Shown in pieces: positions 1 through 36,330 of a DNA stretch of 36,330 nt. The notes under the pieces were generated by a model. It did not search any database, was not told the DNA's origin, and was given only the letters and a program-made list of their open reading frames with translations. Both the position numbers and the translations under genes were made by a program. The stretch is from a virus, in the IMG/VR virus record IMGVR_UViG_3300050821_010807, positions 1-36,330 of that record. The stretch is one strand, 5' to 3'. Positions within the stretch are counted from its first letter, which is position 1; every line of letters starts with the position of its first letter.

Positions 1-105
1 GGCGACGGCTACGGCTCCGGCTACGGCGACGGCTACGGCTCCGGCTACGGCGACGGCGACGGCGACGGCTCCGGCGACGGCTCCGGCTACGGCGACGGCT
101 ACGGC
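1..105 (+). repeat. GC-rich codon repeat, (GGC NAC/TCC)n
   Basis: The stretch is built from six-base units of GGC followed by GAC, TAC or TCC. A higher-order unit (GGCGACGGCTAC then GGCTCCGGCTAC) is visible at the left. It codes the Gly-rich tail above and coincides with the window edge, a typical place for a short-read assembly to break. Confidence 0.85.
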
Positions 106-108
106 TGA
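1..108 (+). CDS. 3' end of a glycine-rich repeat protein (partial)
   Basis: Frame 1 is open from the first base to a TGA at 106-108. It reads as glycine alternating with Asp, Tyr or Ser (GDGYGSGY-type dipeptides). The start codon lies outside the window. This is the same frame in which the last gene of the window (35695 onward) runs off the right edge, so the two are probably one gene if the molecule is circular. Glycine-dipeptide tails of this sort occur at the C-termini of uncharacterised phage proteins. Frames 2 and 3 are also open across the repeat, and frame 2 continues into the next ORF, so the frame is favoured by the stop placement and by the Shine-Dalgarno of the next gene rather than proven. 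No function is assigned. Confidence 0.5.
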   Translation, partial: GDGYGSGYGDGYGSGYGDGDGDGSGDGSGYGDGYG

Positions 109-124
109 TCTGAGAGGACCACAA

Positions 125-1396
125 ATGAGCAAGCCGCTGTCATCTGGGCTACTAAAGGTCAATGCTCGAGTGGCTTTGCTGCTCGCTGACCTATCATCCG
201 AAGACGCGGCACTCGTGATCCTTCAGCAGGTAGAGACGATGGGCTTGCACGAGACAAAGGCGTGGCGCCTGTTCCTGGATAGGAACCGGAAAGCGACCGG
301 AAAGCGACCGGAACCAGACCCTAATGTTATGACGGAAAGCGACCGGAAATATTCTGCCCAGATTCCTGCCCGTGTCGTTCAGGTTTCCGGTGGCTTTCCG
401 GTTGGAGGGGTAAGGGGAGGTTCTCTATCTTCTGATTCTATCTATCATTCTGAGCAGATCCGAGAAGTGACTTCACCGGTATCTACTGCCGAAGATTCGA
501 ATCATGAGTGGGGACTTGCGGGCGAGACGGCGCCCGGTTCGCGAGGCGCGGGGCGTGCGCCGAGCGACGAAGTGGGCATCGATGTCGATGCTAAGAGCGG
601 CGAGGCACTGCGTGCTGTACCCGCCATCCGTCGCTCTCGGCTGGAGGTGTCCAGTGGCGATCGAATGGGAGAAGGATACGTCGGGCATCTCGCTTCGGGA
701 GATCGAGTCGAAGCAGCCCTACAAGCACGAGCCGCACAATCTGAAGCCGCTGAAGCGCTTTCCTTGGCTCGTATGCCAGAAGTGCGGCCTAGTGACGCTT
801 CGGAATCCGATTACGGAATGGTGCCTGCGGATGGGATGCAACGCGGCGGATCATCCGGGCTACAAGGCGGCGCTTGCCAAGTCGAGTCGGTGAAGCGATT
901 CAACCCCGCTGCGCTCGTCGAGCACTTTGTCGCTGGCGTGAACGACGCTGGCGGCATGTGGGTATGTCCTAGCGGCAAGCCGTTCACGGACCTCGCCGCG
1001 GCGCTGCAACCGTGGGCCGCAAAGGTGTCGTTCGGAACGCCAGGCCCGCTCGAGAGGTGCTCTCTGCTTGGCCGCCGATGGTTCGCCTACTGCGGGGGTG
1101 CCCCGCGCGACGCTTGGAAGGCCGCTGCGTGGCTCGGCGAGGGGGCACCGGAGGAGCCGCGGCGCCCCCCGGCCCCGCGCGAGGTTCAGGAGAGCGCGGC
1201 GAAGGCGAGGCGCTCCGAAGAGGCCAAGGCCCGCGAGCGCGACGCGGAGCGCAGGAAACGCGAGGAGCAGGCGGTGCCGGCTCCCCCCGAAGTGCGCGCG
1301 AAGCTCTCTGCGCTCTTTGAGCAGCCAGGGAGCCAGACGCGCGTGAAGTCCGCGCAGGAACAGGCTGAAGAACTGGAGAGGATGGTGGGCGAATGA
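125..1396 (+). CDS. Long ORF spanning the iteron array; possible replication-initiation locus
   Basis: The ATG follows a good Shine-Dalgarno (GAGAGG, about 7 bases upstream). The ORF gives 423 residues that I do not recognise. Residues 1-60 look like a small helical domain. Residues 55-95 are encoded by the iteron array at 286-401. The C-terminal third is rich in Lys, Arg, Glu and Ala and probably coiled coil. The middle (about residues 177-255) is suspect because a better gene (654-893) occupies another frame there. A GTG at 890 overlaps that gene's stop as GTGA, so the true arrangement may be a first gene from 125, the nested gene 654-893, and a separate gene 890-1396. Codon use before about 480 is less GC-biased than in the structural genes. 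An initiator whose own gene carries the origin, as lambda O does, would fit the array, but no initiator domain was recognised. Confidence 0.45.
   Translation: MSKPLSSGLLKVNARVALLLADLSSEDAALVILQQVETMGLHETKAWRLFLDRNRKATGKRPEPDPNVMTESDRKYSAQIPARVVQVSGGFPVGGVRGGSLSSDSIYHSEQIREVTSPVSTAEDSNHEWGLAGETAPGSRGAGRAPSDEVGIDVDAKSGEALRAVPAIRRSRLEVSSGDRMGEGYVGHLASGDRVEAALQARAAQSEAAEALSLARMPEVRPSDASESDYGMVPADGMQRGGSSGLQGGACQVESVKRFNPAALVEHFVAGVNDAGGMWVCPSGKPFTDLAAALQPWAAKVSFGTPGPLERCSLLGRRWFAYCGGAPRDAWKAAAWLGEGAPEEPRRPPAPREVQESAAKARRSEEAKARERDAERRKREEQAVPAPPEVRAKLSALFEQPGSQTRVKSAQEQAEELERMVGE
286..401 (+). repeat. Iteron-like array of CCGGAAAGCGA boxes on an 11-bp period
   Basis: Direct copies of CCGGAAAGCGA lie at 286-296 and 297-307. 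A truncated copy (CCGGAA) begins at 308. ACGGAAAGCGA is at 332-342 and CCGGAAA at 343-349. Inverted copies TTTCCGG lie at 384-390 and 395-401, again 11 bp apart; the second matches the direct unit over 9 bases (GCTTTCCGG). The constant 11-bp spacing puts the boxes close to one helical turn apart, as expected of iterons that load a replication initiator or a regulator. Confidence 0.7.
286..470. other. Candidate phage replication origin (iterons plus AT-rich tract)
   Basis: The iteron-like boxes at 286-401 are followed by a pyrimidine-rich, AT-rich stretch. Roughly 70% of bases 421-450 are A or T, in a genome that is otherwise clearly GC-rich. Boxes beside an easily melted tract inside a coding region is the architecture of the lambda origin within gene O. 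A DnaA domain IV-like protein is encoded 1.5 kb downstream. The alternative is an operator cluster for a regulator. No DnaA consensus box (TTATNCACA) was noticed, so a phage-specific binder is more likely than host DnaA. Confidence 0.45.
654..893 (+). CDS. Small Cys4 zinc-ribbon-like phage protein, nested in another ORF
   Basis: The GTG start is preceded by a perfect GGAGG six bases upstream (643-647). The 79-residue product carries CQKCG and, 17 residues further on, CLRMGC, a plausible zinc-binding Cys4 arrangement. A His-Pro-Gly-Tyr segment lies near the end. The part from KHEPHNLKPLKRFP onward resembles small conserved phage proteins of unknown function, going by my recollection of the family. 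The stop overlaps the next GTG by four bases (GTGA). It lies in frame 3, inside the frame-2 ORF 125-1396, and the two cannot easily both be real over this stretch. The Shine-Dalgarno and the Cys pattern favour this one. A start at 504 exists, but the extra N-terminus is Arg-rich and lacks a good ribosome site. Confidence 0.6.
   Translation: MAIEWEKDTSGISLREIESKQPYKHEPHNLKPLKRFPWLVCQKCGLVTLRNPITEWCLRMGCNAADHPGYKAALAKSSR
890..1396 (+). other. Alternative reading: separate CDS from GTG 890
   Basis: This is the same frame and stop as the ORF starting at 125, but GTG 890 overlaps the stop of 654-893 as GTGA, the coupling style used throughout this genome. It would give a 168-residue protein. The globular N-terminal part contains CPSGKPF, two further Cys and several Trp residues. 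A Lys/Arg/Glu-rich helical tail follows. The product is not recognised. If the nested gene is real, this is the more likely start. Confidence 0.45.
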
Positions 1397-2600: not shown

Positions 2601-3082
2601 TGGCGCGCGCATGCACCGTTTGCATACATCGCGAGCGCGAGGCCATCGATGCGGCTCTCATCCGCGGCGAGAAGAACCGTCGTGTAGCGGCGCACTATAA
2701 TCTCGTGGAGTCTTCGGTACGTAGGCACCTACCGCATATCCAAAGGGACCTTCAAGCGGCGCAGGCCGTCGTCGAATCGACGCACCGGCGGCTGCGGACT
2801 TTGGACACCGTGGTGGACGAGTGCGAGCGGGACCTGGAGGCCGTTCTCGCGGCTCATCGCGAGACCGTGGCGGACCGGGACTCGGGTGAGCTCGTCATCA
2901 AGGCGGTGGCGCAGCGAGCCAAGCTGGCCGCCCTCCAGTTCGGGACGAAGCGGACGACCACGCTCGTGGACCCGCGCCAGGAATGGGAGGCGCTTAGCCC
3001 GGCGGAGCGTCGGGAGCGGCTCGTGGAGATGAAGCACCGGCTGCTCGAGCTCGAGCAGGAGACGGTGGGAGGGCAGCACTGA
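2600..3082 (+). CDS. terS: Candidate terminase small subunit
   Basis: The 160-residue protein begins with CTVCIHRER, a short Cys/His element. Residues 13-45 then form a helix-turn-helix-like segment (RRVAAHYNLVESSVRRHLP), and the rest is long charged helices. An N-terminal DNA-recognition helix-turn-helix plus a helical oligomerisation region is typical of small terminases, which select phage DNA and pass it to the large subunit. It is the closest upstream gene of suitable size before the large terminase, with three tiny genes between. The assignment rests on domain architecture and position. A transcriptional regulator is the alternative. The start overlaps the previous stop by one base. Confidence 0.5.
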   Translation: MARACTVCIHREREAIDAALIRGEKNRRVAAHYNLVESSVRRHLPHIQRDLQAAQAVVESTHRRLRTLDTVVDECERDLEAVLAAHRETVADRDSGELVIKAVAQRAKLAALQFGTKRTTTLVDPRQEWEALSPAERRERLVEMKHRLLELEQETVGGQH

Positions 3083-3348
3083 TGCTCAAGCTTTGGGATT
3101 TCGAGTGCAACGTCTGCCGCCACGTGTGGGAGGCGCTCGTCGAGCCAGGCGACGACGCTCCGATGTGCCCGCATGCTTGTGGGGGCCGGGGCGTGTGCCA
3201 GCCCTTCACCCAGGGGACCGCGGCGCGCGCGGAGACGAATCCGGCGAAGACACGGGAGATGTTTCAGAAGGCCGCGGAGATGAAGAACAAGGTCCAGGGT
3301 CGGACGCCGTGGCGGAAGACCTCCTACAGCCAGACGGGGAACGAATGA
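3082..3348 (+). CDS. Small zinc-ribbon protein, FmdB-like
   Basis: The 88-residue protein opens with a strand and CNVCRH, then Trp and an acidic turn, then CPHACGGRGVC. This pattern resembles FmdB-type zinc ribbons. The C-terminal half is Lys-rich and ends KTSYSQTGNE, an ending shared exactly with the next gene. The start overlaps the previous stop (TGATG) and the stop overlaps the next ATG (ATGA). The role is unknown; phage zinc ribbons often bind nucleic acid or host proteins. Confidence 0.7.
   Translation: MLKLWDFECNVCRHVWEALVEPGDDAPMCPHACGGRGVCQPFTQGTAARAETNPAKTREMFQKAAEMKNKVQGRTPWRKTSYSQTGNE
3316..3348 (+). repeat. Direct repeat copy A (33 bp, gene tail plus next start)
   Basis: This is the first of two copies that differ at one base. 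It encodes KTSYSQTGNE plus the stop and contains the overlapping start of the next gene (ACGAATGA), with a purine-rich GGGGA that can serve as its Shine-Dalgarno. Confidence 0.9.
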
Positions 3349-3569
3349 CCAAAGTCCGATGCGCATTCTGCGAACTCGCTGACGTGACGGATCCCAACGT
3401 CGCCTTCATGCTCGGTGTGTCTCACGGCGCAACCGATACGGGCTTCGCGTGGGGTCGGCATACTTGCGAGCGTCATGTGAAGACCTTCTTCCAGTCGGTG
3501 GAGAACGCAGACGCTCATCTCGAGGCTCTCCAGCAAAAGACGTCCTACAGCCAGACGGGGAACGAATGA
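3345..3569 (+). CDS. Small Cys/His protein sharing a tail with its neighbour
   Basis: The 74-residue product has CAFCEL near the N-terminus and HTCERH at 46-51, a possible metal site. Its last ten residues, KTSYSQTGNE, are identical to those of the preceding gene and are encoded by an almost identical 33-bp DNA repeat. The ATG at 3345 is set by overlap with the previous stop; the frame is open further upstream. The function is unknown. The shared tail points to a local duplication or a mobile 3' module. Confidence 0.65.
   Translation: MTKVRCAFCELADVTDPNVAFMLGVSHGATDTGFAWGRHTCERHVKTFFQSVENADAHLEALQQKTSYSQTGNE
3537..3569 (+). repeat. Direct repeat copy B (33 bp, gene tail plus next start)
   Basis: This second copy lies 221 bp downstream of copy A. 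One base differs (AAGACG instead of AAGACC), and the difference is silent in the shared tail. It again provides GGGGA and the ATGA junction that starts the next gene. Confidence 0.9.
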
Positions 3570-3763: not shown

Positions 3764-5322
3764 TGCCCCTCACCCCGGAAGAGCGCGCCCGCGCCGATGC
3801 GAGCCTGATGCGGCTCTCGGTCCCCTACCCTGGGGACGCGCGGAGCTTCGTCGATGCGGCGACGCGCGAGGTGCCGTGGCAGCGCACTTTCGTGCTCGAC
3901 CAGAGCCCGCGCAAGGCGCTCTTCGGCGAGCGGCGCGGAGCCAAGACGACCACCTTCGGCATCGCTTGCGTCGCGCGTCGCCTCTCGCTGCCAAACAGCA
4001 AAGGGGTTTACGTTGGGCTCACGCAGGAGAGCGCAACGCGTGTGTTTTGCGACGAGGTGCTGGACCGGCTCCGTCGCCGCTACCAGCTGCCTTTCGAGAT
4101 CGTGGGCGACAACGAGGCGCGCTTCGAGAACGGGTCGATCATCTACGTGATCGGCCTCGATGCGACGAAGAAGCAGAAAGAACGCGTGCGCGGCATCAAG
4201 GCGAGCGACGTCACGATCGACGAGATGCAGAGCTTCACGCAGGACATCGGGAAGATCATTCTCGAGATCCTCGGGCCGGCCGCGGCGGACACGATGGCGC
4301 CCATTCTCATTGGCGGCACGGCGGGCGACGCCTTCGAAAGCAACTTCTGGTATCAGCTCACACGCGACAACACGCCGTCGACGCCCGCGGGAACGCCGAG
4401 CAAGGCCCATCCTGAGTGGAAGGTGTGGCGCTGCAAGTGGAGCGAGAACACCGCGACGGACGAGATCACCGGCCGGCGCATCTGCGACAACGTGCGCGAC
4501 TACCACGCCGAGCAGATTCGGAAGCACCCAGGGATTGAGCGGACCGACTCATGGCTCCGGGAGTGGGAGGCGAAGTGGGTCATCCTCATTACGTCGCTCA
4601 TCTACCGGTTCGGGAAGTGCAACCTCGTCGGCCACCTGGAATGCATGGAGATCGACACCGGGGCGGCGATTCCGAAGCCCGGTGAAGCCTTCCTCGCGAG
4701 CGCCGTGTTCATACTCGGGCTCGACCTCGGCTACAACGACCCGACTGCGTTCGTGGTCTGCGCGTACAACACCGCTTTCAGCAACAAGCTCTACGTCATC
4801 GAATCATTCCAGCAATCCGGGATGCTCGTCGCGCACGTGCACTCGAAGATCGTCGAGTACGAAGGGCGCTACGAGTTCACGTACAAGGTCGGGGACTCGA
4901 GCTCGCTGCAGATCTTCGAAGACCTGCGCCAGACGTACGGCCACAACTTCGAGAAGGCCGACAAGCTCGGGAAGCGCTCGCACCAGCTCATGGTGAACAG
5001 CGACCTCCAGACGCGCGTGGTAGTCGTGCTGCCAGGAAACGATGAGCTCGTGGGCCAGCTCGAGACGTGTCGATGGGAGGCCGAGGCGCTGAAGAAGAAC
5101 CAATACGTGGAGGACCCGAAGGACCCGAACCACCTCTCGGACGCCTTCCTCTACGCGCACCACTTCTCGCGGTCGCTCTGGTACGAGGCGCCCAAGCCGC
5201 GGCGCAACATGACGAACGAAGACCACGTGGCGAAGCTCACGAAGAGCCTCATCGAAAAGCAGCACCAAGAGTTCAGCGGCGAGGACGGAGGGTATTCGGG
5301 TGATATTTACAGTGAGGGATAG
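3763..5322 (+). CDS. terL: Terminase large subunit (packaging ATPase and nuclease)
   Basis: The 519-residue protein has the two-domain layout of large terminases. The N-terminal ATPase carries a Walker A-like GERRGAKT (55-62) and a Walker B VTIDE (150-154). The C-terminal RNase H-like nuclease has an acidic residue in GLDLGY (Asp321), another in VGDSS (Asp378), and a third in HLSDAFLYAHH (Asp460). It pumps DNA into the prohead at the portal vertex and cuts the concatemer. It matches the gp17-like terminase group in length and motif order. The start overlaps the upstream gene's stop (TAATG). The 3' end overlaps the HNH gene by 23 bases. Confidence 0.95.
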   Translation: MPLTPEERARADASLMRLSVPYPGDARSFVDAATREVPWQRTFVLDQSPRKALFGERRGAKTTTFGIACVARRLSLPNSKGVYVGLTQESATRVFCDEVLDRLRRRYQLPFEIVGDNEARFENGSIIYVIGLDATKKQKERVRGIKASDVTIDEMQSFTQDIGKIILEILGPAAADTMAPILIGGTAGDAFESNFWYQLTRDNTPSTPAGTPSKAHPEWKVWRCKWSENTATDEITGRRICDNVRDYHAEQIRKHPGIERTDSWLREWEAKWVILITSLIYRFGKCNLVGHLECMEIDTGAAIPKPGEAFLASAVFILGLDLGYNDPTAFVVCAYNTAFSNKLYVIESFQQSGMLVAHVHSKIVEYEGRYEFTYKVGDSSSLQIFEDLRQTYGHNFEKADKLGKRSHQLMVNSDLQTRVVVVLPGNDELVGQLETCRWEAEALKKNQYVEDPKDPNHLSDAFLYAHHFSRSLWYEAPKPRRNMTNEDHVAKLTKSLIEKQHQEFSGEDGGYSGDIYSEG

Positions 5323-5749
5323 AGAGAGGCTCCGCGCGCGTCTCGTTCCCGAGCCGAACACCGGATGCTGGCTCTGGTCTGGAGCAGCCAACCGGAGCGG
5401 ATATGGGACGATGTTTTTTCGAGGCAGGCCCGAATTGGTTCATCGCCTCGCATGGGCATTTGAGAAGGGCGCGCCTGGTGAATTGTGCGTCTGTCACAAG
5501 TGCGACACGCCTGCGTGCGCAAACGTAGAGCATCTGTTTCTGGGAACCAGAGTCGATAATAATTCCGATATGACGCGGAAGGGACGACGTGCGCCAATGC
5601 CTGGCGCAAAGCTATCGGCAGGCGATGTATCTCGAGTCCGAGCGATGCTGGCAGAGGGTGTGATGGGAAGTTACGTGGCGAAGCTATTCGGCGTAACGCC
5701 GGGCACCATATCTATGATCAAGAGAGGGCATCGCCATGGCGAAGAGTGA
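5300..5749 (+). CDS. HNH endonuclease with C-terminal helix-turn-helix
   Basis: The GTG start lies 7 bases after GGAGGG and inside the end of the terminase gene. In the 149-residue product, residues 22-92 match the HNH_3 family of phage and homing endonucleases: CWLW, VHRLAW (His48), CVCHKCDTPAC, NVEHLFLGT (Asn75, His78) and DNNSDM. The Cys residues probably hold a structural zinc ion. Residues 105-142 form a helix-turn-helix with VAKLFGVTPGTISMI, the usual site-recognition module of such free-standing nucleases. HNH genes next to terminases either move as homing elements or assist packaging. Codon use is less GC-biased than in the terminase, suggesting later arrival. The 3' end overlaps the next gene by 14 bases. 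Confidence 0.9.
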   Translation: MIFTVRDRERLRARLVPEPNTGCWLWSGAANRSGYGTMFFRGRPELVHRLAWAFEKGAPGELCVCHKCDTPACANVEHLFLGTRVDNNSDMTRKGRRAPMPGAKLSAGDVSRVRAMLAEGVMGSYVAKLFGVTPGTISMIKRGHRHGEE

Positions 5750-28016: not shown

Positions 28017-29521
28017 ACGCCCGCACTCATAGGGTTATTCTTTCGCTCATCGTTATTGCATCGGCAATGTCGGCGGCCATCTCCTGGCGCAACCCGGAAG
28101 CACGAGCCTCAGCGGTAACTGGCTTAGGGCTCGGCGCGACCTCGGGCGCGCCGTCATTGCCTGCGCAGGTAATGATTGTGATGATTGGGGGGCAATCGTT
28201 GTCCAACGGTGGCGGGGATCTGTACGACGCGGCTGCGCAGGCGACGTATGCGAACGGCTTCGAACTATGCAATGATGCGGGGACGTATACCCTGCCGGCG
28301 TCCGGCAATGCTTGGGGTCTCTGTCCGATCGAAGCCTATGGTCGCTCCTTCGTGGACGCAGCCGTAGGGGCAATCATCGCTATGCCCTACCCTAACAACT
28401 ACCTCGGCCCATCATTCGATCGGCAATTCCAGATCGACTTTGCCGGCTTGCTACAGGGCGGCGGGTACCCGGCGCCCACCCTGGTTACGTCGAGCACAGG
28501 TGTGGGCGGTGGCCTATTCACACAGGTTGGGTATGGCGGGTCATACAACTCATTCGATGCCGGGTTCTTCGAGATGCGGGAGATCGCGGCGCTCGCGTCC
28601 AACTCGGGTCGCACGTCTGCGGTGGCGGCGTTCGTATTTGTCCACGGCGAGGCCGATTGCGCTGCGCCAGTGGCCACGTATCAAGCCAATCTGGCGACGG
28701 AATGCAGTGCTGTCCAGACGTATTATCGGCAGACGACGGGGCAAACGAGGGCGATTCCATGCATCATCGCCGAGCAGGATGCTAGATGCCAAAGCGCCGC
28801 TCCGGTCTATGCGTGGAGCGAGCAGGCGCAGCTGATGGCATCCCAAGCGGGGGCCGGCGTCATGGGGTCCCCGCAGATTGCCGGCGCTACCTATATGATG
28901 CCCCGCGATCAGGTGAGCGGGGATTATGCGCATATGACTTTGCCGGGGTACAAGCAGCTGGGGGCCCTCATCGCCAAGGTGGCCTATCATGATGAGCGAT
29001 ACCTGGACGGCGCCGAGTCGCCGCGATGGGAGGCGACGCAACCACTGAAAGTGACGTCTACAGACGCGACGTGTGGGGCGCTGGACCCTGGCACATTCAC
29101 CGTGTCTGGTAACGACATTACGGTGCAGATCCATACACCCAATCCACCACTACAGACGGATTGCGGGACATTCGGGGCGCCGCACCAAACAGGAACATAT
29201 TCAACATGGGGCGCATGCGTTGGGTGGGGCGGCTGGGTAGGTGGCCTAGCTGGTACCCCCGTCCACTGCAGTAGCATTAGTTACGGCGCGTGTATTGGCC
29301 ACACGTGCCCGATGACGATACACTTCGGCGGGCCTATCGATACCATCGAGTACGCGCATACCCCGGACACGCCTCTAGGGGGCGCCACCTGCCAGGGTGG
29401 TGGCCGATGTGGATGCGTCCGGGATCAAGGAGAATTTACAGACCCGAGCACTGGGGCCCCCATTTACTCCTACCTAACTCAATTCTTCCAGTGCGCTGGA
29501 CCGGACGGAGGCCCGTTCTAA
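28013..29521 (+). CDS. Exported SGNH-type carbohydrate esterase
   Basis: The 502-residue protein has an N-terminal signal (hydrophobic 8-24, ARASA cleavage-type site near 30-34). The catalytic blocks of sialate-O-acetylesterase-like SGNH hydrolases are visible: MIGGQSLSNG with nucleophile Ser62, VHGEAD (210-215), and DYAHMTLPGY with Asp304 and His307 as the other triad members. It probably removes acetyl groups from host surface polysaccharide. The C-terminal 150 residues are Cys- and Gly-rich and may bind carbohydrate. Base composition here is less GC-rich than in the capsid genes, suggesting recent acquisition. It is coupled to the lectin-like gene before it. The family call is strong; the substrate is unknown. 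Confidence 0.8.
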   Translation: MNARTHRVILSLIVIASAMSAAISWRNPEARASAVTGLGLGATSGAPSLPAQVMIVMIGGQSLSNGGGDLYDAAAQATYANGFELCNDAGTYTLPASGNAWGLCPIEAYGRSFVDAAVGAIIAMPYPNNYLGPSFDRQFQIDFAGLLQGGGYPAPTLVTSSTGVGGGLFTQVGYGGSYNSFDAGFFEMREIAALASNSGRTSAVAAFVFVHGEADCAAPVATYQANLATECSAVQTYYRQTTGQTRAIPCIIAEQDARCQSAAPVYAWSEQAQLMASQAGAGVMGSPQIAGATYMMPRDQVSGDYAHMTLPGYKQLGALIAKVAYHDERYLDGAESPRWEATQPLKVTSTDATCGALDPGTFTVSGNDITVQIHTPNPPLQTDCGTFGAPHQTGTYSTWGACVGWGGWVGGLAGTPVHCSSISYGACIGHTCPMTIHFGGPIDTIEYAHTPDTPLGGATCQGGGRCGCVRDQGEFTDPSTGAPIYSYLTQFFQCAGPDGGPF

Positions 29522-32609: not shown

Positions 32610-32800
32610 CAGCGCACCTCCTCAACGAGAACCGCGATCGTCGAGCCGCATGCGCAATTGCGCATCTCGGCCTCTTCGCCGTTCGGTCCCGCGTCGGGTA
32701 GCACCCCGCAGAGCGGCAGTTCGGCCCAGGCCTTGGCGGTGAAGGCCGCGCCACACGCGCAGACCTTCACCACCGGCGGGAGGGAGACGGCAGCGCTCAC
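32609..32800 (-). CDS. Zinc-ribbon-like protein, 63 residues
   Basis: The GTG at 32800 overlaps the stop of the upstream gene as GTGA. The protein has VCACGAAF near residue 13, a single Cys in the middle and NCACGSTI near residue 50, a likely Cys4 site. A frame extension to 32839 is possible but would overlap the upstream gene more. The function is unknown. It is adjacent to the recombination genes. Confidence 0.65.
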   Translation of the reverse strand: MSAAVSLPPVVKVCACGAAFTAKAWAELPLCGVLPDAGPNGEEAEMRNCACGSTIAVLVEEVR

Positions 32801-33834
32801 GACTTCGCCTTGCGCGGGTCCACCGGCGCGGTGGCCCAATCGGGCAACGCCTCCGTCGGAGGGGCCTCGAGAGGTGCGGGCTCTGGCGCAGCCGCCGGCG
32901 CGGACGCCAGAGCCGCTGCGGGTGCTGGTGTCTCCGGGACGGCCGCGGCCTTCGCTTGCGGCGTCTGCGGGGATGTTCGGTTCTCCGCCGTGGCGCCCGC
33001 GCGGAGCTCGTCCTCGAGCTTCTTCGCGGCCGGAACGCCCTCTCCGGCGAGGGGGGGGAACGCCTCGTCGATCGTTGTGTCGCCGTTGTGGATGGCGGTT
33101 CCGAGGCCGATGAGCGCCTCGACCTCCTCGATGCCGAGGTCTTCAAGCGAAGACTTGCCGACGCGCGGGAAGATGCGCTCCTTCGGGACGCCGATCTTCA
33201 TGAGTCGATCGACGAGTGAGGCGCGCTTCGCCGCGAAGGTCTTCGCATCCCCCACCGCCACGTTCTTCGCGGCGAGGTAGATGCGATCGATGTACGCGCG
33301 CGGCACGACGCGGAAGATGGCGTTCCGGATGGCGATCGACGCCGCGGCGTTGCCGGTCATCGTGATCATGTCGTCGCTGTAGCGGCGCCCCTTGGAGGTG
33401 GTGATGCGCCGGCGCACCTCCGTCGTGACGCGGATGTTCTTCTCGAGGTCCCACGCGACCCCCTGCGCGATGACCTCGCGCTCCTCCGCGTCGAGGATGC
33501 GTGCGGCAACGTGGAGGTTTCCGTACGCGCTGGCGGCGATCTCCGCGAGTCGCACGCTCGGGCCCGAGATGACGATCTCCTTCCCGTTCTGCTTCCGCGG
33601 GAGGGCATAGAGGCACGACTCCGCCACCCCCTGGCTCACCGTCGCGAGCGTCTCCGCCTCCTTCAGGAACTTCCCGATCGAACGCGGGTACTTGTGCGCA
33701 GCATCAAGCTGCGCCTCCGTCTCGGAGCGGGCGAAGACCGCGACGGAGCTGTTGTCCACCCGGCTGAGCGCGCCCTCGTCGTTCATGAGGGTCTCGAGGG
33801 GGTCCTTCGGGGTCTCAATCGGCTGCATCGTCAT
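32797..33834 (-). CDS. Conserved recombination-associated protein; candidate annealing protein
   Basis: The 345-residue protein is paired with the exonuclease gene directly upstream. Residues 86-200 are the most regular part: IVISGPSVRLAEIAASAYGNL (88-108), GVAWDLEKNI, EVRRRIT with a basic patch, DDMITMTGNAAASIAIRNAIF (154-174), RVVPRAYIDRIY. Residues about 200-260 are helical. From about 280 the sequence is Ala/Pro/Glu linker. I recall this family as recurrent beside phage exonucleases, where RecT, Redbeta or Erf would normally sit, so a single-strand annealing role is proposed. It does not show an obvious RecT or Erf signature. The ATG is 3 bases after the exonuclease stop. Confidence 0.65.
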   Translation of the reverse strand: MTMQPIETPKDPLETLMNDEGALSRVDNSSVAVFARSETEAQLDAAHKYPRSIGKFLKEAETLATVSQGVAESCLYALPRKQNGKEIVISGPSVRLAEIAASAYGNLHVAARILDAEEREVIAQGVAWDLEKNIRVTTEVRRRITTSKGRRYSDDMITMTGNAAASIAIRNAIFRVVPRAYIDRIYLAAKNVAVGDAKTFAAKRASLVDRLMKIGVPKERIFPRVGKSSLEDLGIEEVEALIGLGTAIHNGDTTIDEAFPPLAGEGVPAAKKLEDELRAGATAENRTSPQTPQAKAAAVPETPAPAAALASAPAAAPEPAPLEAPPTEALPDWATAPVDPRKAKS

Positions 33835-33837
33835 GGC

Positions 33838-34692
33838 TCATTCGCTCCAGTCGGGAAGGGTGATCGTTTGGATGGTATCCGAGTGTCCGGGCCATTGGTC
33901 GGTGGCGAGGGCCTCGGCGAGGCGCTGCATGTCCTCGCGAATGGTGGTGTGCCCCTTCGCAACGGTGGTGAGGTCTAGCGTGTAGACCGCGACGTCGTAG
34001 GGGCGCGCCTTCTCGATCGCGATAAACACGAAGTGTTGGAGCGGCTGTCCCAGCGTTTCGCAGGCGTCGCGGTACATCGCTTCCTGGCGGTGGTAGCCGA
34101 ACCGCGCGACGGAGCGCGCGAACTGCGCAAGCCGAACGTCCTCCGTCGTCTTCAGGTCCACCGCGATGTGTCGGGCGGCCAGGTAGTAGTCGAGCCGGCC
34201 CTTGCACTCGAGCCCCGTCGCGCGATCGCGCCACCGGAGCGTCACTTCCTGCGCGCCACCGAAGATGAGCCGTGCCGCCATCGGATGCGCCCGGAGCTTC
34301 TCCACCATCCCCTGAATCGCCGTGTTCTCCGCCGCGGAGATGGGCTTCCGCCCCTCGTGGGCCTTCCGCCAGTCGTCGCGTGCTTTCTTGTTCTCCGTCT
34401 TGCGGCAGTCGCCGAAGTCGGGCTCGCACGCATAGGACGCTTCGAAGCGCGCGGGCTCGAATACGGCGCAGTGGAAGGCCTGGCCAAATTCGAGCGCCGG
34501 AGTGGGCTCCCGTGAGCCCCCAGCGACCTCGTCGCGGTAGTGGAGCAGCGAATGGCGGACGCGGTCGAGCATCGACTTGCTCGCGAGCCCGAGGACACGT
34601 GAGTGGTAGACGCTCTCCGGCACATCGGGGTGGATGCCGTGCGGGATTTCGAGAATCGACGGCGGGTTTTCGATGGTGATTGCGGCGCTCAA
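33838..34692 (-). CDS. PD-(D/E)XK exonuclease, RecE/YqaJ-like
   Basis: The TTG at 34692 overlaps the previous stop (TTGA) and follows a strong GGAGGAAGAG. An extension to 34830 would cover most of the neighbouring gene. The 284-residue protein carries the RecB-type nuclease motifs: LEFGQAFH (67-74), Glu149 (AQEV), GRLDYY with Asp168, VDLKT with Asp179 and Lys181, and QEAMY (203-207). These define a 5'-3' exonuclease that makes single-stranded tails for recombination, as RecE and lambda Exo do. It works with the annealing candidate immediately downstream. The start of the mature core (LGLASKSMLDRV) is also family-typical. Confidence 0.9.
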   Translation of the reverse strand: MSAAITIENPPSILEIPHGIHPDVPESVYHSRVLGLASKSMLDRVRHSLLHYRDEVAGGSREPTPALEFGQAFHCAVFEPARFEASYACEPDFGDCRKTENKKARDDWRKAHEGRKPISAAENTAIQGMVEKLRAHPMAARLIFGGAQEVTLRWRDRATGLECKGRLDYYLAARHIAVDLKTTEDVRLAQFARSVARFGYHRQEAMYRDACETLGQPLQHFVFIAIEKARPYDVAVYTLDLTTVAKGHTTIREDMQRLAEALATDQWPGHSDTIQTITLPDWSE

Positions 34693-34967
34693 GACTCTTC
34701 CTCCTCGCGGGTCATTCCGATGTACGTCTCGGCGGCGAGGAGCACGTTCTCCAGCGCGCGCGCGTGCTCGCGGTACTGCGCGAGGCTTCCAATCTCGGCG
34801 TGGACGCCCGTCCGCCGCGCCACACGGCACGCGCGAGCGAGCGCAGCGAGGCGCATCATCTTCACGGACTCGGCCGTGAGCGCGAGCTGCATGCCCTCGT
34901 CGAGCGTGAACGTGTCCACCACGGCCATGTCCCGGCCGCGGCTACGCGGCGTCGCGGGGCCATTCAT
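34689..34967 (-). CDS. Small helical protein, 92 residues
   Basis: ATG 34967 overlaps the previous stop (ATGA). The N-terminus is basic (RSRGRDM), followed by helices with DTFTLDEGMQLALTAESV and a Leu/Ala-rich helix (HARALENVLLAAETYIGM). Not recognised. The stop overlaps the TTG start of the exonuclease, so it is probably co-translated with it. Confidence 0.65.
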   Translation of the reverse strand: MNGPATPRSRGRDMAVVDTFTLDEGMQLALTAESVKMMRLAALARACRVARRTGVHAEIGSLAQYREHARALENVLLAAETYIGMTREEEES

Positions 34968-35698: not shown

Positions 35699-36330
35699 AC
35701 GTCCTCACGAAGACCGCGATCGCGGAGCGACTCGAGCTCCTGAAGTCGATGACGCTCGGTCACGGCTCTCACCCGAAGCCGCCGACGCTAGAAGTGCCCC
35801 CTCCGTCCTGCGCTCTCGAGGCCGCGGCCTGGGTGGCCGGCGAGGAGTGGAGCGACCATCCGGAATGCGTCTCGACCACCATCGCGGCGATGTGCCGAAG
35901 CTTCAACGACCGGTGCGGATTCGGGCCCGAGGCGGACGCCCGGCGGACCCGCGTGCTCGTTCCGCTCATTCCCCTGATGCTCAACACGAGCGGATCAAAT
36001 GCACTTGAGCGTCGCCGCGTTTTCGCGACGCTTGACTGGGCGACGCGCTCTGCGCTCCCGCGCATCCTCGCGCGCACGCGGACCTTGCAGGAATGGGGGC
36101 CCGGGATGGCGGCTCTCGCGGAGATCGTGGATGAGGACTCGTTCGTAGCCGCGCGCAATAAGCGTCGCAAGATGGCGAATGCCGCATGGGACGCGCGCGA
36201 CAAGGCGTGGCAGGCCTTCTATAAGCGCTGGCGAGGGATGGCGGTGTCGGAGGCGGTGGCGGAGGCGGCGGTGTCGGAGGCGGTGGCGGAGGCGGCGGTG
36301 TCGGAGGCGGTGGCGGAGGCGGCGGTGTCG
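35695..36330 (+). CDS. Phage protein with Ala-rich nonapeptide repeats (3' partial)
   Basis: The ATG is set by ATGA overlap. The ORF is open to the window end, giving at least 212 residues. Residues about 35-150 are globular and helical, including DWATRSALPRILARTRTLQEW and the AEIVDEDS segment that resembles a family of uncharacterised phage proteins with long Ala-rich tails. A Lys/Arg/Trp-rich helix follows. From 36241 the nonapeptide AVSEAVAEA repeats until the sequence ends. The frame continues in register with the Gly-rich tail at 1-108 if the molecule is circular. Function unknown. Confidence 0.7.
   Translation, partial: MNVLTKTAIAERLELLKSMTLGHGSHPKPPTLEVPPPSCALEAAAWVAGEEWSDHPECVSTTIAAMCRSFNDRCGFGPEADARRTRVLVPLIPLMLNTSGSNALERRRVFATLDWATRSALPRILARTRTLQEWGPGMAALAEIVDEDSFVAARNKRRKMANAAWDARDKAWQAFYKRWRGMAVSEAVAEAAVSEAVAEAAVSEAVAEAAVS
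36241..36330 (+). repeat. 27-bp tandem repeat, 3.3 copies, at window edge
   Basis: Exact 27-bp units start at 36241, 36268 and 36295, with a 9-base remainder to the end. Each encodes AVSEAVAEA. The repeat is truncated by the window edge, so the true copy number is unknown. Confidence 0.95.

What the first reader, a model, noticed from the sequence alone, without database searches (positions are those of the whole stretch)
286..470. Iteron array with 11-bp period next to an AT-rich tract: candidate phage origin inside a gene
Direct CCGGAAAGCGA boxes (286, 297, truncated 308, 332, 343) and inverted TTTCCGG boxes (384, 395) all step by 11 bp within each cluster, and an AT-rich tract follows at about 421-460. 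The layout parallels the lambda origin inside gene O. No replicative enzyme is otherwise recognisable in the window, which makes an origin here important. The boxes do not resemble DnaA boxes, so the initiator would be phage-specific.
Basis: partly seen in the sequence, partly recalled or inferred. Interest (0 to 1): 0.75.

Follow-up and report, generated by a model that had tools for sequence, protein, structure and literature searches.

The report
Likely phage replication origin inside a gene
A 36-kb uncultivated phage contig carries an array of short repeated DNA boxes beside its most easily melted stretch, inside an open gene. This looks like the in-gene replication start site of phage lambda, and two distantly related phages have the same layout with different box sequences.

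Summary
Seven boxes with core ACCGGAA (five direct, two inverted) step by 11 bp within each cluster at 285-402. The next stretch (420-470) has the lowest GC of all 36,330 bases. Both lie inside a frame that stays open from 125 to 1396. The boxes fall in all three codon phases, so selection acts on DNA and not on a repeated peptide.

Relatives support the reading. L014 shares RusA, exonuclease, recombinase and lysin at 38-49% identity. It carries an unrelated 11-bp-type array (GCGACACC, 12 copies) around its own GC minimum, inside an ORF just before RusA. L126 carries a third array in a PHROG "replication initiation protein" next to RusA. In 124 loci I found 37 such arrays, against about 1 expected; 21 lie beside extreme low-GC DNA. 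Most ORF-borne cases checked are replication initiators.

Best reading: a lambda-like iteron origin with a phage-specific initiator, probably the protein of the ORF that holds it. Caveats: the window ORF matches no initiator family, GC skew does not peak here, and nothing is shown biochemically. New member of a known kind; interest moderate.

The parts
125..1396 (+). ORF that encloses the array (423 aa if read through; AGAGGA just upstream of ATG 125). N-terminal about 52 aa, then the box/AT-rich linker, then the rest. Candidate initiator gene.
   Evidence: Open frame. Own-codon score good at 125-280, weak at 284-470, recovering at 473-600. Over 281-520 the other two + frames hold 3 and 4 stops and this one none; 60 of 2000 shuffles stay open. 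No family hit.
285..295 (+). box 1, ACCGGAAAGCG (codon phase 1)
296..306 (+). box 2, ACCGGAAAGCG (codon phase 0)
307..317 (+). box 3, ACCGGAACCAG (core only, codon phase 2)
331..341 (+). box 4, GACGGAAAGCG (one core mismatch, codon phase 2)
342..352 (+). box 5, ACCGGAAATAT (core only, codon phase 1)
381..391 (-). box 6, inverted, ACCGGAAACCT
392..402 (-). box 7, inverted, ACCGGAAAGCC
404..420 (+). purine/G-rich spacer GGAGGGGTAAGGGGAGG between boxes and melting tract
   Evidence: Similarity to the spacer in L014 is not significant.
420..470 (+). AT-rich tract, candidate DNA unwinding element
   Evidence: lowest GC of the whole window at 30, 40 and 50 bp; bottom 0.01% of 40-bp windows
654..893 (+). 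Context: phrog_7020 Cys-rich small protein, in another frame inside the long ORF
   Evidence: E 2.6e-16; distant homologues in 117 phage records
2178..2600 (+). Context: RusA-like resolvase, downstream neighbour shared with L014 and L126
   Evidence: phrog_34 E 0.027; 38% to L014, 45% to L126

Best explanation
Positions 285-470 are a phage replication origin of the iteron type embedded in a gene. A phage-specific initiator, most likely the product of the enclosing ORF (125-1396) or a neighbouring early gene, binds the seven ACCGGAA boxes. The boxes sit one helical turn apart within each cluster, so they would assemble on one face of the DNA. The nucleoprotein complex then strains and melts the adjacent AT-rich tract (420-470), where the host helicase is loaded. 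Shown here: the boxes, their phase, the tract, the open frame and the recurrence of the layout in relatives. Inferred: initiator binding, unwinding, helicase loading and the identity of the initiator.
For: Densest word cluster outside the contig ends, directly beside the window's GC minimum. Boxes in all three codon phases while the frame stays open. L014, chosen only for protein homology, has 12 GCGACACC boxes in both orientations around the 40/50-bp GC minimum of the 20.7 kb examined, inside an ORF just before RusA. L126, found through exonuclease and sharing RusA, has AGCGTTA/GTAACGC boxes inside an ORF next to RusA that matches 'replication initiation protein' (E 4e-23). Scan of 124 loci (2.11 Mb): 37 arrays against 1 in each of three Markov-2 nulls; 21 beside bottom-1% GC against 0. 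Array-bearing ORFs in L024 (weak), L026, L050, L080, L091, L097, L103 (weak), L106, L113, L115, L126 match replication-initiation, replisome-organiser or primosomal families, and L083 matches primosomal ones below its best unknown-function hit. Layout equals ori-lambda: four 18-bp iterons plus a 38-bp AT-rich tract within gene O (PMC3349717; PMC7466680).
Against: No initiator, helicase or helicase-loader family was recognised in the window ORF and only about 52 residues precede the boxes. The L014 ORF also has no family. Cumulative GC skew has its minimum near 28.1 kb. The contig is linear and probably incomplete, so an initiator or origin could lie in missing sequence. The ORF overlaps the phrog_7020 gene in another frame, so its true extent is uncertain. 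No close relative covers 1-943.
Confidence: 0.72

Rival explanations
1. Operator or regulatory array: an early phage DNA-binding protein binds the boxes to repress or activate transcription of the RusA-terminase operon, with no role in replication.
For: Short boxes one helical turn apart in both orientations would also suit a cooperative regulator; the array lies near the start of a rightward gene series.
Against: The array is inside an ORF and not in a promoter gap. It sits beside the single lowest-GC stretch, an association that recurs in relatives, often in replication-initiator ORFs.
Confidence: 0.12
2. Partition (centromere-like) site: 11-bp boxes bound by a ParR-like protein of a plasmid-like prophage.
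For: An 11-bp period recalls the plasmid R1 parC iterons (from memory).
Against: No ParM- or ParA-like protein was met among the proteins scanned, though not every ORF was scanned. parC does not normally sit beside an AT-rich tract inside an ORF (from memory). L014, the relative with this layout, carries an integrase.
Confidence: 0.05
3. Packaging-initiation (pac/cos-type) site recognised by the small terminase.
For: Candidate small and large terminase genes lie at 2600 and 3763; such sites can contain repeated binding boxes.
Against: The array is more than 2 kb from the terminase genes. In L014 the array's contig position is about 14.5 kb and the large terminase is at 29.1 kb. The AT-rich partner and initiator ORFs in relatives are not explained.
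Confidence: 0.05
4. RNA hairpin: the 20-nt inverted repeat 284-303/384-403 forms a regulatory stem in the mRNA.
For: 95% complementary arms.
Against: Folding is only mildly better than shuffles (z -1.83, 10 of 200). Boxes in L014 are mostly direct with scattered inverted copies and form no comparable single stem by inspection.
Confidence: 0.03
5. Neutral slippage repeat in a disordered protein linker, without function.
For: Two exact neighbouring 11-bp copies could arise by slippage; the linker codes poorly and is predicted disordered in a low-confidence model.
Against: Inverted and separated copies, placement beside the global GC minimum, and 37 arrays against about 1 in random sequence across relatives.
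Confidence: 0.03

Closest known systems
ori-lambda inside gene O (phage lambda and Stx phages)
   Same: Iteron array followed by an AT-rich tract in the middle of an ORF in a lambda-like early region; boxes phage-specific (PMC3349717, PMC7466680).
   Different: Boxes are about 11 bp with a 7-bp core and no internal dyad, in both orientations, against four separate 18-bp iterons. The ORF has no O-like domain hit and only about 52 aa before the array. No P-like loader recognised.
Array-bearing replication-initiation ORFs of other phages (PHROG 2149, 1408, 16167, 270, 391, 2447 and others), here L026, L080, L091, L097, L106, L113, L115, L126
   Same: Short-spaced boxes inside the ORF; in several beside low GC; in L126 also next to RusA.
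   Different: Those proteins carry a recognised initiator domain before the array; the window and L014 ORFs do not.
Iteron plasmid origins (Rep-binding direct repeats plus AT-rich region)
   Same: Repeats spaced by helical turns next to an AT-rich unwinding region (general knowledge; reviewed in PMC4980987, listed, not read).
   Different: Plasmid iterons are usually longer and lie outside the rep gene (from memory).

Membership tests
lambda-type in-gene origin | Array of repeated initiator-type boxes inside an ORF | tested here: met
   Seven boxes at 285-402 in ORF 125-1396
lambda-type in-gene origin | AT-rich tract directly beside the array | tested here: met
   420-470 is the GC minimum of the window
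lambda-type in-gene origin | Enclosing gene encodes an O-like or other known initiator | tested here: not met
   No hit in PHROGs, Pfam, NCBIfam or PDB sequences; remote homology cannot be excluded
lambda-type in-gene origin | Iterons of about 18 bp with short spacers | tested here: not met
   11-bp unit, 7-bp core
lambda-type in-gene origin | Helicase-loader gene downstream | tested here: inconclusive
   None recognised among scanned proteins, but the record is a linear, probably incomplete contig
lambda-type in-gene origin | Initiator binds the boxes and opens the AT-rich tract | not testable with these tools
   Needs EMSA or footprinting and P1/KMnO4 assays
DnaA-dependent origin | Consensus DnaA boxes | tested here: not met
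   No TTWTNCACA in the window
Replication origin by strand composition | Cumulative GC-skew extremum at the site | tested here: not met
   Minimum at 28,095, maximum at about 9.66 kb; skew also follows gene direction, so weak either way
ParR-type centromere | Adjacent parM/parA and parR genes | tested here: inconclusive
   None among proteins scanned; not all ORFs scanned

The most novel reading that the evidence does not exclude
The window and L014 ORFs represent a so far unrecognised class of minimal phage initiators: a short N-terminal segment, a linker whose DNA is the origin, and no known initiator fold, working without a phage-encoded helicase loader.
Probability: 0.25. Interest if true: 0.55.

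Novelty: new member of a known kind. Interest (0 to 1): 0.38.

Why it matters
It gives an uncultivated phage lineage a concrete, testable replication origin although no replication gene could be named in it. It also shows that 'array plus lowest-GC stretch inside an ORF' can flag initiator genes that profile searches miss: in the loci examined, most ORF-borne arrays beside extreme low-GC DNA lie in recognised replication initiators.

Tried and rejected
(1) Exact 17-mer in viral contigs: three hits, one unrelated gene, chance. (2) tblastn of TerL, portal, capsid and the ORF against phage records: no match. (3) Conserved G-tract 'GGGGTAAGGGGAGG' plus pyrimidine tract shared with L014, L024, L091: attractive by eye, but the motif is no commoner than letter-swapped controls and the window-L014 match is no better than background; dropped. 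(4) RNA hairpin: z -1.83. (5) AlphaFold2 on single sequences: pLDDT 46 and 59, too low to search by fold. (6) PDB sequence search: nothing meaningful. (7) GC skew: does not point to the site. (8) First genome-contig scan with a single sequence: no relatives. My first list of arrays was picked by eye, so I repeated it with fixed rules and a null; the null is a Markov-2 model and does not mimic coding-sequence repeats, so part of the 37-to-1 excess may be ordinary coding repetition.

Full report
What is there. The window is a linear IMG/VR record of 36,330 bases. At 285-402 there are seven copies of an 11-bp unit with core ACCGGAA. Five are direct (285, 296, 307, 331, 342) and two inverted (385-391, 396-402), stepping by exactly 11 bp within each cluster. 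Six copies of one 7-mer in 118 bp is the densest cluster outside the contig's low-complexity ends; random sequences of the same composition gave at most 3 to 5. The adjoining stretch 420-470 is the lowest-GC DNA of the whole window at three window sizes.

The frame. ATG 125 is preceded by AGAGGA and its frame runs without stop to 1396. Scored with codon usage from the phage's own large genes, 125-280 looks coding, 284-470 looks poor, and 473-600 recovers. Over 281-520 the other two frames on this strand hold three and four stops and this one none; about 3% of shuffles do as well, so the evidence that the frame is kept open is moderate. The boxes fall in codon phases 0, 1 and 2 and so encode different residues, which means the repetition is a property of the DNA. 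An unresolved point: a Cys-rich small gene (phrog_7020) occupies 654-893 in another frame, so the true end of the first protein is uncertain.

Relatives. Only one near-identical contig exists in the collection (L008, 100%) and it starts at window 944. I therefore aligned the recombinase-like protein (phrog_3657, 32797-33834 minus) with phage homologues and scanned for distant relatives. L014 shares recombinase (49%), exonuclease (42%), lysin (43%) and RusA (38%). In both phages the exonuclease is on the opposite strand from RusA. In L014 an ORF just upstream of RusA carries 12 GCGACACC boxes in both orientations, in several codon phases, around a tract that is the 40- and 50-bp GC minimum of the 20.7 kb examined. 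The box sequence differs from the window's; the layout is the same. L126 (exonuclease 45%, RusA 45%) carries a third box type inside an ORF beside RusA that matches 'replication initiation protein' at E 4e-23. The L014 ORF itself matches no family.

Wider test. With fixed rules (at least four copies of a 7-mer within 220 bp, at least two spacings of 9-13 bp, at least two not divisible by three), 124 loci (2.11 Mb, window included) hold 37 arrays; each of three Markov-2 randomisations holds one. Twenty-one lie beside a bottom-1% GC stretch, none in the randomisations. Of the ORF-borne arrays beside low GC, excluding the window and L014, L026, L080, L091 and (weakly) L103 match replication-initiation families, and L083 matches primosomal families below its best, unknown-function hit; L027, L072 and L075 match nothing, and L114 was not searched. 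Array-bearing ORFs outside that filter (L050, L097, L106, L113, L115, L126, and weakly L024) are also replication proteins. In L105 and L107 the array lies at the end of, or just after, a primase/helicase gene. Arrays with this geometry therefore mark replication origins or replication genes in this sample, though some arrays remain unexplained.

Mechanism. The anatomy matches ori-lambda, where four 18-bp iterons and a 38-bp AT-rich tract lie within gene O and the O complex leads to opening of the AT-rich tract (PMC3349717; PMC7466680). I infer that a phage initiator binds the seven boxes, aligned on one helical face within each cluster, and that 420-470 opens for helicase loading. The initiator is most simply the enclosing ORF, as in lambda and L126. 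That is inference: the ORF has no family match and a low-confidence model shows only three short N-terminal helices.

Against. GC skew does not mark the site, though skew in such a genome also follows gene direction. The contig ends in unrelated low-complexity repeats and is probably incomplete, so the real initiator may be missing. No binding, unwinding or read-depth data exist.

Verdict. An ordinary kind of object (an in-gene iteron origin) in an uncharted phage, with a short-unit array and an unrecognised host ORF. It works like ori-lambda; it is not filed as a member of the lambda O family because the O-like protein and the 18-bp iteron features were tested and not met.

Noticed in passing
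window 1-108 and 36240-36330: Both contig ends stop inside unrelated low-complexity coding repeats (GDGYGSGYG-type and VSEAVAEAA-type), as if assembly broke there. The genome may be longer or circular, with early genes missing between the ends.
   Followed up: partly
window 654-893 inside 125-1396: A conserved Cys-rich small protein (phrog_7020, also in Vibrio and enterobacterial phages) lies in a different frame entirely inside the long ORF: a nested overlap, or a sign that the long ORF's 3' part is not translated as annotated.
   Followed up: partly
window 3316-3348 and 3537-3569: A 33-bp direct repeat (97%) 221 bp apart; the first copy is the 3' end of ORF 3082-3348, a small Cys-rich zinc-ribbon-like protein, so the gene tail may have been duplicated.
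   Followed up: no
window 5300-5749: HNH endonuclease gene overlapping the end of the large terminase gene (phrog_1872, PF13392).
   Followed up: no
window 32797-34830 (minus strand): Recombination pair: phrog_3657 protein beside an exonuclease VIII-type nuclease (PF12684), opposite in direction to the structural genes. phrog_3657 is listed as unknown function but often sits beside such exonucleases in the relatives.
   Followed up: partly
L102 12754-12905, L104 12736-12887, L105 12724-12864, L107 13812-14057: Mixed-orientation arrays around very AT-rich stretches (12-20% GC) in or near prophage-like regions of gut bacteria; in L105 and L107 next to primase/helicase genes. Candidate origins of another type.
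   Followed up: partly
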